DNA of 64,000 bases. It comes from Halomonas meridiana. Lineage in GTDB: Bacteria > Pseudomonadota > Gammaproteobacteria > Pseudomonadales > Halomonadaceae. The translations under genes were made by a program, and so were the position numbers. The stretch covers positions 1,116,001-1,180,000 of the forward strand of contig NZ_CP024621.1 in assembly GCF_009846525.1 (NCBI RefSeq), given 5' to 3'. Of this stretch, positions 11,735 to 14,919 are shown one piece after another. A model generated the notes under the pieces. That model saw only the letters and a list, made by a program, of their open reading frames with translations. It searched no databases and was not told the origin of the DNA. Each line of letters starts with the position of its first letter. The first letter of the stretch is position 1.

Positions 11735-11835
11735 ACGCGGCGCCATTCCGGCAACAGCGCGGAATAAGCGCTGAACGTACGTAACCAGCGCCGCCGCAAC
11801 GGCGGCGCTAGCGGTTGATTGGCGAGGAATTTCCC

Positions 11836-12750: not shown

Positions 12751-13621
12751 TGTGATTCGTCGCCAAACGCCTGCGGCCAAGTTGTGGCGGGGCGTGCTGT
12801 ACGCGGTACTGATCATCGCCGCGCTGTTCTACGTTCTGCCGCTGGTGGTCATGTTGATGACTTCCATCAAACCGCTGAGCGAAATCAGCGCCGGTACGCT
12901 GCTGTCGTTACCGCAAAACCCAACGCTGGCCCCCTGGACAAAAGCCTGGGGCGAAGCCTGCACCGGCATGCGCTGCGAAGGCGTGGGCGGTTATTTCTGG
13001 AACTCCTTTGCTATCGTCATTCCTGCGGTGCTGATCTCCACCGCCGTAGGAGCGCTGAACGGCTACGCCCTGACCAAATGGCGCTTCAAAGGCTCCGAGC
13101 TGGTCTTCGCGCTGATGCTGTTTGGCTGCTTTATCCCGTTTCAGGTGGTGCTGCTGCCCATGGCACAAACCCTGGGCTGGCTGGGGCTTTCCAGCTCGCG
13201 GGCGGGGCTGATCCTGGTGCACGTGGTGTTTGGTATCGCCTTTACCACGCTGTTCTTCCGCAACTTCTACGTGGGCATTCCCAACGAGCTGGTGTCGGCG
13301 GCCAAGCTGGACGGTGCCGGATTCTTCCGTATTTTCTGGCGCATCCTGCTGCCGGTGTCCGCCCCTATCATCGTGGTCTCGGTGATTTGGCAGTTCACCC
13401 AAATCTGGAACGACTTCCTATTCGGCGTGGCGTTCTCGGCACACGACACCCAGCCGGTGACCGTGGCGCTCAATAATCTGGTGAACACCTCCACCGGCGT
13501 GCGCGAATACAACGTCGATATGGCCGCCGCCATGATTGCCGCACTGCCCACCCTGGTGGTGTACGTGCTGGCGGGTAAATACTTCGTGCGTGGGCTAACG
13601 GCAGGCTCCGTAAAGGGCTAA
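12743..13621 (+). CDS. Sugar ABC transporter permease, MalG/GtsC-like
   Basis: The 292-residue protein has six membrane segments, the EAA loop VSAAKLDGAGFFRIFWRILLP near residue 185, and the usual C-terminal tail KYFVRGLTAGSVKG of the MalG type. It overlaps the preceding permease gene by 8 bases, with AAGGAGC in the overlap as ribosome site. A segment with MRCEGVGGYFWNS near residues 72-84 precedes the conserved core, as in GtsC proteins. It is the second channel subunit of the sugar importer. Confidence 0.93.
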   Translation: MANVIRRQTPAAKLWRGVLYAVLIIAALFYVLPLVVMLMTSIKPLSEISAGTLLSLPQNPTLAPWTKAWGEACTGMRCEGVGGYFWNSFAIVIPAVLISTAVGALNGYALTKWRFKGSELVFALMLFGCFIPFQVVLLPMAQTLGWLGLSSSRAGLILVHVVFGIAFTTLFFRNFYVGIPNELVSAAKLDGAGFFRIFWRILLPVSAPIIVVSVIWQFTQIWNDFLFGVAFSAHDTQPVTVALNNLVNTSTGVREYNVDMAAAMIAALPTLVVYVLAGKYFVRGLTAGSVKG

Positions 13622-13653
13622 TAACAACTAGGTGCATGGCAGTCCCAGGTAGA

Positions 13654-13750
13654 GGTCAGCATCTCCCCGTAGCGGGGGTCTTTCGCCAGGACGGCGAAAG
13701 TAGCGCCCAGGGAAGGGTTTACAGCGCCCCCGCCAAGGGGTGATCTGACC
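13654..13750 (+). repeat. Multi-hairpin palindromic intergenic element (REP-like)
   Basis: A 97-bp element between the permease and ATPase genes is bounded by the inverted termini GGTCAG (13654-13659) and CTGACC (13745-13750). Inside are a perfect hairpin CTTTCGCC-AGGAC-GGCGAAAG (13680-13700), a CCCCG/CGGGG hairpin (13665-13677), two direct copies of AGCGCCC (13702 and 13723), and a CCCC/GGGG hairpin near 13727-13740. The organisation and the CCAGGGAAGGGTTTACAGCG-type core resemble the interspersed palindromic repeats seen in intergenic regions of related gammaproteobacteria. No second copy lies in this window. It could be a REP/MITE remnant or an RNA structure lowering or stabilising part of the operon message. 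Confidence 0.6.
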
Positions 13751-13797
13751 GGTGCCAATGCGTGTCTTGCCAGCTCCCTTAGAACAGGATTTTGATA

Positions 13798-14919
13798 ATG
13801 GCAGCGTTAGAGATTCACAACGTACGCAAAGAGTTTGGCAGCGAGCGGGTGCTGAAAGATGTCAGCATCTCCATCGATTCCGGCGAGTTTTTGATTCTGG
13901 TGGGGCCATCCGGCTGTGGTAAATCCACGCTGATGAACGCCATCGCAGGCCTTGAACCGGTCACCAGCGGCAATATCTATATCGACGGCGAAGACGTCAC
14001 CTGGCGCACCCCCGCCGAGCGCGATATTGCCATGGTGTTCCAGTCTTACGCCCTGTACCCCAGCATGACCGTACGCCAAAACATCAGCTTCGGCCTAGAG
14101 ATGCGCAAAGTGCCCAAGGCCGAGCGGGAAGCCGCCGTGGAGCGGGTGGCCGATCTGCTGCAGATTTCCCACCTGTTAGAACGCAAGCCCGCCCAGCTCT
14201 CCGGCGGCCAGCGCCAGCGGGTGGCCATGGGCCGCGCCTTAGCGCGGGAGCCTAAGGTCTACCTGTTCGACGAGCCGCTCTCAAACCTGGACGCCAAGCT
14301 GCGCGTGGATATGCGCACCGAGATTAAAAAGCTCCACCAACGTTTAGGCACCACCATCGTCTACGTTACCCACGACCAAGTAGAGGCCATGACCCTAGCG
14401 GACTGCATCGCGGTGATGCGTGATGGCCATATTCTGCAGTTAGGCAGCCCTGATGAGGTCTATAACAACCCGGTGGATATGTTCGTAGCGGGTTTTATGG
14501 GTTCACCGTCGATGAACTTCATCCGCGCTACGCTGGAAGCCGACGGCGATGGCTATGCACTGCGCATTGCCACCCCCGATGAAGCCGACCTGCTGCTGCC
14601 GTGGCCAGCGGCCCGCCATACGGCAGGGCTAGTGGAGCAGCTCGACAAGCCGGTGATTCTCGGCCTGCGGCCTGAACATTTCAGCGAAGAGGATGTGCGG
14701 CTCAGCGAGCAGGCCGAAGGCACGCTGCTGGAAGCCAAGGTGAGCGTGGTGGAGCCGACCGGTGCCGATATTCTGCTGCGCCTGCCGTTAGGGGAGCAGG
14801 AGATTACCGCGCGGGTCGGGCCGAAGTGTGAGGTGTCGCCCGGTGAGCGCTTGGCGCTGAGGGTCGATATGTCCCGGGCGGTGCTGTTCGATGCTGAAAC
14901 CGAGCAGCGGCTGGCTTGA
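13798..14919 (+). CDS. Sugar ABC transporter ATP-binding protein, MalK/UgpC-type
   Basis: The 373-residue protein has Walker A GPSGCGKST near residue 38, the Q loop FQSYALYPSM, signature LSGGQRQRVAMGRAL near residue 134, Walker B VYLFDEPLSNLDA and the switch His in YVTHDQVEAMTLAD. The C-terminal 130 residues form the regulatory TOBE/OB domain of MalK-type ATPases. It energises the importer and could also power related porters. ATG 13798 follows an AGGAT ribosome site; the upstream in-frame TTG is less likely. It is separated from the permeases by the palindromic element, so its expression may be tuned separately. Confidence 0.93.
   Translation: MAALEIHNVRKEFGSERVLKDVSISIDSGEFLILVGPSGCGKSTLMNAIAGLEPVTSGNIYIDGEDVTWRTPAERDIAMVFQSYALYPSMTVRQNISFGLEMRKVPKAEREAAVERVADLLQISHLLERKPAQLSGGQRQRVAMGRALAREPKVYLFDEPLSNLDAKLRVDMRTEIKKLHQRLGTTIVYVTHDQVEAMTLADCIAVMRDGHILQLGSPDEVYNNPVDMFVAGFMGSPSMNFIRATLEADGDGYALRIATPDEADLLLPWPAARHTAGLVEQLDKPVILGLRPEHFSEEDVRLSEQAEGTLLEAKVSVVEPTGADILLRLPLGEQEITARVGPKCEVSPGERLALRVDMSRAVLFDAETEQRLA

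What the first reader, a model, noticed from the sequence alone, without database searches (positions are those of the whole stretch)
13654..13750. Multi-hairpin palindromic element inside the sugar-importer operon
A 97-bp unit with inverted ends (GGTCAG...CTGACC), a perfect 8-bp hairpin, alternative C4/G4 pairings and direct AGCGCCC repeats separates the permease genes from the ATPase gene. It explains a 176-base gap in an otherwise tight operon. It resembles interspersed REP-like elements; in place it could stop exonucleases and set different levels for binding protein/permeases and ATPase.
Basis: partly seen in the sequence, partly recalled or inferred. Interest (0 to 1): 0.5.

Follow-up and report, generated by a model that had tools for sequence, protein, structure and literature searches.

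The report
Scattered hairpin repeat with twin GGA loops
The structure between the sugar-importer genes is one copy of a scattered, insertable hairpin repeat whose two loop tips resemble landing sites for a common bacterial RNA-binding regulator; what it does and what moves it are not yet known.

Summary
In detail: 13654-13750 is a 97-nt nested hairpin (RNA fold z -4.6). It is not single-copy. A covariance model finds 8 copies at E<=1e-4 in this genome and copies in 76 of 82 genus genomes, own included, up to 40 each. The permease-ATPase gap was read in 52 of them: 26 carry the element, core forward in 14 and flipped in 12; 26 do not. It is an insertion of about 156 nt. Distant relatives occur in 36 of 274 sampled Gammaproteobacteria, own included. 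Isolated stem mismatches on the GGA strand are G.T 71 times, A.C 17 times, so that strand seems selected as a folded single strand. It is not the REP of the RAYT genes, not an Rfam family, not a terminator. The loops resemble CsrA/RsmA sites, but flipping and unbiased gene orientation argue against a fixed role in this mRNA. Mobiliser and function are inferred.

The parts
13633..13788 (+). stretch inserted relative to empty sites of congeners (about 156 nt; ends ambiguous by a few bases because of TAGG/CAGG-like direct repeats)
   Evidence: gap 179 nt here against 23 nt in L160 and L164 and 22-23 nt in L023, L024, L025, L027, stop codon counted
13654..13750 (+). 97-nt element with GGTCAG/CTGACC ends; GGA strand = + strand = sense to the operon
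   Evidence: R1 98.1 bits at 13667-13741
13654..13678 (+). left arm of the element (GGTCAG end, C4 and G5 tracts)
   Evidence: pairs with 13727-13750; its sequence differs between sites and clades but stays complementary
13727..13750 (+). right arm of the element
13680..13700 (+). hairpin 1, stem CTTTCGCC/GGCGAAAG, loop AGGAC (GGA 13689-13691)
   Evidence: stem covaries in the class-wide alignment
13706..13717 (+). hairpin 2, CCC-AGGGAA-GGG (GGA 13711-13713, 22 nt after the first GGA)
   Evidence: covaries
13718..13726 (+). TTTACAGCG after hairpin 2 (TTYACRGCG in most relatives)
13633..13653 (+). left outer flank, part of the insertion; weakly complementary to the right flank
13751..13785 (+). 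right outer flank, part of the insertion
13786..13789 (+). AGGA, likely ribosome-binding site of the ATPase gene, kept after the insertion
   Evidence: sequence; AGGA lies at the same place in empty sites such as L160 and L164
12743..13621 (+). upstream gene: sugar ABC permease (nearest NCBIfam models GlcU, UgpE, MalG, below their cut-offs)
13798..14919 (+). downstream gene: sugar ABC ATPase (UgpC model above its cut-off; MalK-like)

Best explanation
The 97-nt unit is one copy of a low-copy, dispersed, insertable palindromic repeat family of Vreelandella/Halomonas-type bacteria, itself a branch of a superfamily spread through the Gammaproteobacteria. Shown by the sequences: multiple copies, filled and empty sites at a gene junction, compensatory evolution, the core in both orientations between the same flanks, and a G.T over A.C excess that marks the GGA strand as a folded single strand. 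Inferred: it spreads through a step in which the GGA strand is single (ssDNA or RNA) and is recognised by its paired GGA loops; the enzyme is unknown. In this operon it most likely sits as a tolerated insertion. The ribosome-binding site of the ATPase gene survives at the right edge. The insertion parts the permease stop codon from the ATPase start by 176 nt instead of about 20, which should uncouple their translation, and it puts a very stable hairpin into the mRNA, which may protect the upstream 3' end from decay.
For: Copies: 8 in the own genome at E<=1e-4, 76 of 82 genus genomes, 36 of 274 class genomes, own included each time. Insertion: 26 of 52 genus genomes filled, 26 not; six named relatives with 22-41 nt gaps among 33 of the 80 fetched loci read; R1 finds an element in 1 of all 80. 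At least 13 changes among empty, forward and flipped on the operon tree (tree, 15 open forks of 49). Second slot behind a gltD-like gene (named by eye): of 30 loci read (78 of 82 genomes matched) 10 hold a clear element, 9 forward and 1 reversed, with several arm sequences, and others hold plain hairpins or other repeats. Covariation in 36 caps of the class: 96.8% of cells paired (shuffled mean 72.1), 127 cells with changes on both sides (39.0), score 0.637 (0.164), 0 of 500 shuffles for each. G.T against A.C on the GGA strand 71:17 after removing duplicates, p 5e-9; outer arms alone 53:13. GGA in the loop of 38 of 39 second hairpins of the nested module, a hairpin outside the search pattern.
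Against: No mobiliser was found: by eye, ordinary genes lie between the inverted pairs that I could read (output cut, no family search). Target duplications are not clear for this family (TAGG-like repeats only). The one same-family and two same-order genomes listed in the class search had no match, so the class-wide kinship is patchy and could partly be convergence. Two of the five covariation measures are weak: pairs with a change on both sides 10 against 8.1 (8 of 500), further pair types 25 against 24.1 (216 of 500); rows were found with a model of this structure. Exchange of the operon among congeners could mimic gains and losses. The G.T bias could be partly mutational. Direction relative to replication is only weakly biased (79:52, p 0.023, copies not independent). 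No transcript data at all.
Confidence: 0.6

Rival explanations
1. The cap is a double binding site for the CsrA/RsmA regulator. When the GGA strand is transcribed, one CsrA dimer bridges the two loops; scattered copies act as local switches or together as a sink for CsrA, and here would tie the sugar importer to carbon-storage control.
For: Loops read C-A-N-G-G-A-N-G in 81 of 102 class copies for both hairpins. The exact SELEX consensus RUACARGGAUGU, as quoted in PMC3856055 (passages), occurs in 6 of 36 A3 rows and 13 of 102 class copies. The same passages say that sites lie in hairpin loops and mention sites at least 18 nt apart; here 22-24 nt in most copies. G.T bias is stronger where the upstream gene would make the GGA strand the message: 37:3 against 25:12 in antisense settings, Fisher p 0.009 (looser gene calls). 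A Halomonas CsrA 86% identical to that of E. coli is listed in PMC12889724 (passages).
Against: The window copy does not hold the exact consensus and its first loop is AGGAC, without the N. In 12 of 26 filled operons the core is flipped, so the message shows the complement of GGA. Across the class sense and antisense placements are equal (20 and 25, p 0.55; a looser count gave 21 and 41). The long form puts two GGA hairpins on the opposite strand. No sigma-70-like promoter at 13500-13900.
Confidence: 0.3
2. It is a REP/REPIN mobilised by the RAYT transposase of the genome.
For: Dispersed palindromes with GTAG in the genus copies; a RAYT gene is in the genome.
Against: No element within the fetched flanks of 29 PF01797-type loci, own RAYT included; 9 of these tested against NCBIfam, all 9 RAYTs; most lie by eye among other repeats. 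The own RAYT frame ends early relative to its near relatives. GTAG is not conserved in the class-wide caps. Length 97 nt and few copies, where REPs are recalled as 20-40 nt with high copy number.
Confidence: 0.05
3. A non-autonomous MITE moved by a DDE transposase (for example IS66-like), whose centre carries the cap.
For: In one distant genome (G133) three of seven copies lie between GTARCTACTC and GAGTAGTTAC ends flanked by 8-nt direct repeats ACAATTTT, CTTTCAAT and TGATTTAT (by eye); IS66-type ends and 8-nt duplications are recalled, not looked up.
Against: In the genus the outer arms are not one fixed terminal repeat but vary with compensation; no comparable duplication at the operon site beyond TAGG. 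No search for such transposases was made.
Confidence: 0.15
4. A fixed, operon-specific mRNA stabiliser or attenuator that sets importer stoichiometry.
For: Strong hairpin between permease and ATPase genes; another cap lies in the same gap of Zobellella denitrificans (L039 6242-6319, 41.4 bits, the only hit in 80 operon loci).
Against: Absent in 26 of 52 genus genomes and flipped in 12 of the other 26; same family at many unrelated sites.
Confidence: 0.1

Closest known systems
REP / REPIN elements with RAYT
   Same: dispersed intergenic palindromes, strand-specific fold, sites behind genes
   Different: longer (97-130 nt, two to four hairpins), low copy, arms free in sequence, GGA loops as the constant part, not found beside the RAYT genes of the genus
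ERIC / BIME-type repeats of enterobacteria (recalled)
   Same: about 100-130 nt imperfect palindromes, intergenic, either orientation
   Different: no direct comparison was run; twin GGA caps not known to me there
CsrA/RsmA-titrating RNAs (CsrB, RsmY, RsmZ)
   Same: repeated hairpins with GGA loops; RsmY is in the low-score Rfam list at 11.9 bits against a cut-off of 57, E 0.77, which is chance level
   Different: not one sRNA gene with a promoter but scattered copies near other genes, in both orientations
MITEs
   Same: non-coding, inverted ends, empty and filled sites
   Different: ends not fixed across copies in the genus; no parent transposase found

Membership tests
REP/REPIN (RAYT-associated) | RAYT gene present in the genome | tested here: met
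   L379, NF047646 183.4 bits; not reached by PF01797 at E 0.001, 18.3 bits at E 0.0055
REP/REPIN (RAYT-associated) | same repeat flanks the RAYT gene | tested here: not met
   R1 finds nothing at E<=0.1 in L379, 18 RAYT-like loci and 10 IS200-type loci; other repeats seen by eye
REP/REPIN (RAYT-associated) | GTAG or CGTC foot at one end of a 20-40 nt palindrome (recalled; abstract of PMC3733652 in listing) | tested here: not met
   GTAG inside genus copies, not conserved in class-wide caps; length 97 nt
MITE | terminal inverted repeats shared by copies | tested here: inconclusive
   GGTCGG/CCGACC-like ends common in the genus but arms covary
MITE | target-site duplication | tested here: inconclusive
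   TAGG-like repeats at the operon site; 8-nt repeats in three of seven G133 copies
CsrA/RsmA-binding RNA | GGA in hairpin loops with ANGGA context | tested here: met
   loop invariance in A3 is circular because its rows were chosen by a loop pattern; window loop 1 is AGGA, loop 2 AGGGA
CsrA/RsmA-binding RNA | exact SELEX consensus | tested here: not met
   window no; 13 of 102 class copies yes
CsrA/RsmA-binding RNA | binds CsrA in vitro or in vivo | not testable with these tools
   needs gel shift or CLIP-seq
CsrA/RsmA-binding RNA | GGA strand is the transcribed strand | tested here: inconclusive
   sense in the window; flipped in 12 of 26 operons; 20 sense, 25 antisense in class loci
intrinsic terminator | G+C stem followed by a T run | tested here: not met
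   none at 13500-13900
known Rfam family | score above gathering threshold | tested here: not met
   window 0, 20 class loci 0

The most novel reading that the evidence does not exclude
A class-wide superfamily of mobile hairpins has made a CsrA/RsmA-type site its constant part: twin GGA loops are kept while everything else drifts, so that genomes carry a movable, multi-copy set of CsrA docking sites (and possibly a CsrA-linked way of spreading), nested in each other (twin caps inserted at NGG^A of another cap) and able to flip on or off by inversion between their arms.
Probability: 0.2. Interest if true: 0.85.

Novelty: new variant of a known kind. Interest (0 to 1): 0.6.

Why it matters
Dispersed palindromes are common, but here the constant part is a pair of protein-recognisable loops rather than ends or arms, it seems to be under strand-specific selection, it occurs in both orientations in place, and related caps are scattered over a class of bacteria without a match in Rfam or in the open-access papers searched. 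If the loops bind CsrA, these elements would be a movable layer of a global regulon; if they do not, they point to an unknown single-strand mobility system. Either is directly testable.

Tried and rejected
Pfam PF01797 in the own genome gave nothing at E 0.001, which would have wrongly said 'no RAYT'; the looser search and NCBIfam showed one. The idea that pairs of inverted copies frame a transposase was dropped: by eye the genes between them look ordinary, with ccdAB-like frames in one case (output cut, not tested against families). The idea that the nested module is a free, independently jumping unit was weakened: in all 39 cases read it lies, reversed, where the apex of hairpin 1 would be, judged by eye from the 12 nt before it (in L110, L229, L289 and L405 the arm is unusual), and in G031 21 of 25 module hits lie inside R1 elements, so it is mainly a long subfamily. 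A first, looser gene-context count suggested antisense bias (41 to 21); with stricter gene calls it vanished (25 to 20, 40 of 102 loci set aside). Viral contigs: 0 exact matches to one class-type pattern. Phage records: none. Plasmids: only Halomonas sp. PA16-9, 11 places in one 1.83-Mb record with one annotated feature. Strings of the cap in papers: 39 papers, the 15 listed unrelated by title. PMC9788540 (passages) describes two CsrA-related sRNAs of Alcanivorax, not this repeat. PMC3733652 on GTAG/CGTC repeats: a search of its text found none of five genus or order names. The Rfam low-score list is chance level.

Caveats on counts: R1 was built from four copies and rewards GGA loops and these stems, so loop invariance and pairing in its hits are partly circular; A3 rows were chosen by a loop pattern that 81 of 102 class copies fit, at most two per genome. 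Evidence not chosen by loops: the two loci reached through flanking genes and the second hairpin of the nested module. In some searches two class copies (L260, L325) were dropped by the parser; 150 were used. Transversion mismatches (75) were left out of the G.T/A.C comparison.

Full report
What is there. It folds far better than shuffles as RNA or DNA on the + strand and as RNA on the - strand. There is no terminator-like or sigma-70-like promoter site around it and no Rfam match in the window; the low-score list is chance level.

It is a repeat. A 131-nt DNA query finds five further clear copies or part copies in the own genome (L002-L006). A covariance model, R1, from four copies finds 8 at E<=1e-4 there and copies in 76 of 82 genomes of the genus, own included, 1 to 40 each. 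In the window itself there is one; the next match has 13 bits. The permease is 95-96% identical to named Vreelandella/Halomonas proteins, hence the group name used here.

It is an insertion. In six named relatives the same gap is 22-41 nt (33 of the 80 fetched loci were read), and R1 finds an element in 1 of the 80. In the 52 genus genomes whose permease 3' end matched (82 searched), 26 carry the element and 26 do not. Empty: TAATAACAACTAGGATTTTCATT-ATG (L160, L164); filled: TAATAACAACTAGG-[insert]-AGGATTTT...ATG. The AGGA before the ATPase start survives. Besides the 97 nt, 21 and about 35 nt of further, weakly complementary flank came in. On a tree of the neighbouring coding sequence at least 13 changes of state (empty, forward, flipped) are needed; that tree has 15 open forks of 49 inner branches, and exchange between species may add to the number. 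A second slot, behind a gltD-like gene (named by eye), shows the same: of 30 loci read (78 of 82 genomes matched) ten hold a clear element, nine forward and one reversed, with several arm sequences, one holds a degenerate one, and the rest plain hairpins, other repeats or other sequence (by eye).

It occurs in both orientations in place. At the operon the core is forward in 14 and reversed in 12 of 26 filled genomes, and between some of these the outer flanks are the same, for example G041 forward and G028 reversed. In the distant genome G148 three of ten copies have the core reversed relative to their outer flanks. Inversion between the arms is the simplest reading.

It is wide but patchy. 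R1 hits 36 of 274 sampled genomes of the class (33 of 222 genera, own included), several with more than ten copies. The one same-family and two same-order genomes listed had none. The distant copies share no arm sequence with the window. Common to them is a cap: hairpin 1, a linker ending AGC, hairpin 2, then mostly TTYACRGCG. Both loops read CANGGANG in 81 of 102 copies; the two GGA lie 22-24 nt apart in most. In 36 caps the stems covary: 96.8% of cells paired against 72.1 shuffled, 127 cells with changes on both sides against 39.0, score 0.637 against 0.164, none of 500 shuffles as high; but pairs with a change on both sides (10 of 14 against 8.1, 8 of 500) and further pair types (25 against 24.1, 216 of 500) separate little. 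Zobellella denitrificans has a member in the very same operon gap (L039, 41.4 bits, the only hit in 80 operon loci).

Which strand matters. In stems, isolated mismatches on the GGA strand are G.T 71 times and A.C 17 times (duplicates removed, 150 copies used; outer arms, mostly outside the model, 53 to 13). With strand-symmetric mutation and selection on double-stranded DNA the two should be equal. So the GGA strand seems to be kept as a folded single strand, RNA or ssDNA. The bias is stronger where the upstream gene would transcribe that strand (37:3) than in antisense settings (25:12; Fisher p 0.009; gene calls of the looser kind). Mere transcription-linked mutation should have reversed the bias in the antisense class.

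What the loops are. They resemble the CsrA/RsmA consensus RUACARGGAUGU (PMC3856055, passages). The exact consensus is in 13 of 102 class copies and not in the window copy. A check not tied to a loop search supports GGA loops as the thing conserved: the long form carries a nested module in the apex of hairpin 1, inserted between GG and A of its loop where the short form is at hand for comparison (for example L142 and L144), and reversed in all 39 cases read; its second hairpin was in no search pattern, yet has GGA in the loop in 38 of 39. At the operon, reached through the permease, the second loop keeps A and GGA in all 25 copies that still have both hairpins (L169 has lost part) while the N, the next base and the stem vary (by eye). 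Against a role in the host message: the flips, the equal numbers of sense and antisense placements (20 and 25), and the module on the other strand. I give CsrA binding with consequence about 0.3.

What moves it. Unknown. R1 finds no element near the own RAYT (L379), 18 RAYT-like loci of the genus and 10 IS200-type loci; nine of the RAYT-like proteins were tested and all nine pass the NCBIfam RAYT cut-off. PF01797 matches at E 0.001 occur in 33 of 82 genomes, elements in 76; PF01797 misses some RAYTs, so this comparison is weak. Orientation to replication is nearly even (79:52, 131 copies in five genomes). No copies in phage records and none by one exact pattern in viral contigs. In G133 three of seven copies sit in a larger unit with fixed ends and 8-nt direct repeats, so a DDE transposase may carry them there.

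Function here. Inferred: the insertion takes the ATPase start from about 20 to 176 nt behind the permease stop, which should end translational coupling, and adds a hairpin of about -55 kcal/mol that could slow 3' exonucleases, as is recalled for the malE-malF REP of E. coli. That half of the genus genomes read lack it and 12 of 26 have it reversed says that the operon does not need it in one form.

Literature. Ten searches brought no description of this element in the open-access library held; subscription papers are mostly absent from it, and only listings were seen for nearly all hits. For PMC3856055, PMC12889724 and PMC9788540 I saw passages; for PMC3733652 that a search of its text for five names found none, and the start of its abstract in a listing.

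Noticed in passing
window 11738-11814: The gap between the binding-protein gene and the first permease gene holds another hairpin (AGCGCCGCCG-caa-CGGCGGCGCT); R1 scores this stretch only 13 bits (E 0.39).
   Followed up: no
L379 (G000:C1:2507976-2508299, +): RAYT transposase gene of the own genome; its open frame (149 codons) stops earlier than in near relatives (173-218), so it may be inactive; a different repeat (GTAGCGCGGCGTAACGAA...) follows it.
   Followed up: partly
L365, L366, L368, L370, L373, L378: Several distinct RAYT/REP pairs in the genus (for example GTAGGAGGCC...TTGGGCGA-type repeats), some with repeat arrays around the gene.
   Followed up: partly
L312, L313, L316 (genome G133): Caps inside larger elements with ends GTARCTACTC/GAGTAGTTAC and 8-nt direct repeats ACAATTTT, CTTTCAAT, TGATTTAT.
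   Followed up: partly
L039 6242-6319 (Zobellella denitrificans): A member of the superfamily in the same permease-ATPase gap of a distant bacterium, reversed strand.
   Followed up: partly
G148 loci L243, L279, L297-L304: Elements made of palindromes within palindromes, inner core in either orientation.
   Followed up: partly
G004:C31:42716-43274: A partial PF01797 (IS200-type) match lies about 225 nt behind the element copy at the gltD-like slot in G004.
   Followed up: no
NZ_CP040452.1 (Halomonas sp. PA16-9), L410: 1.83-Mb 'plasmid' record with 11 element places and one annotated feature; its size suggests a chromosome part or chromid.
   Followed up: no
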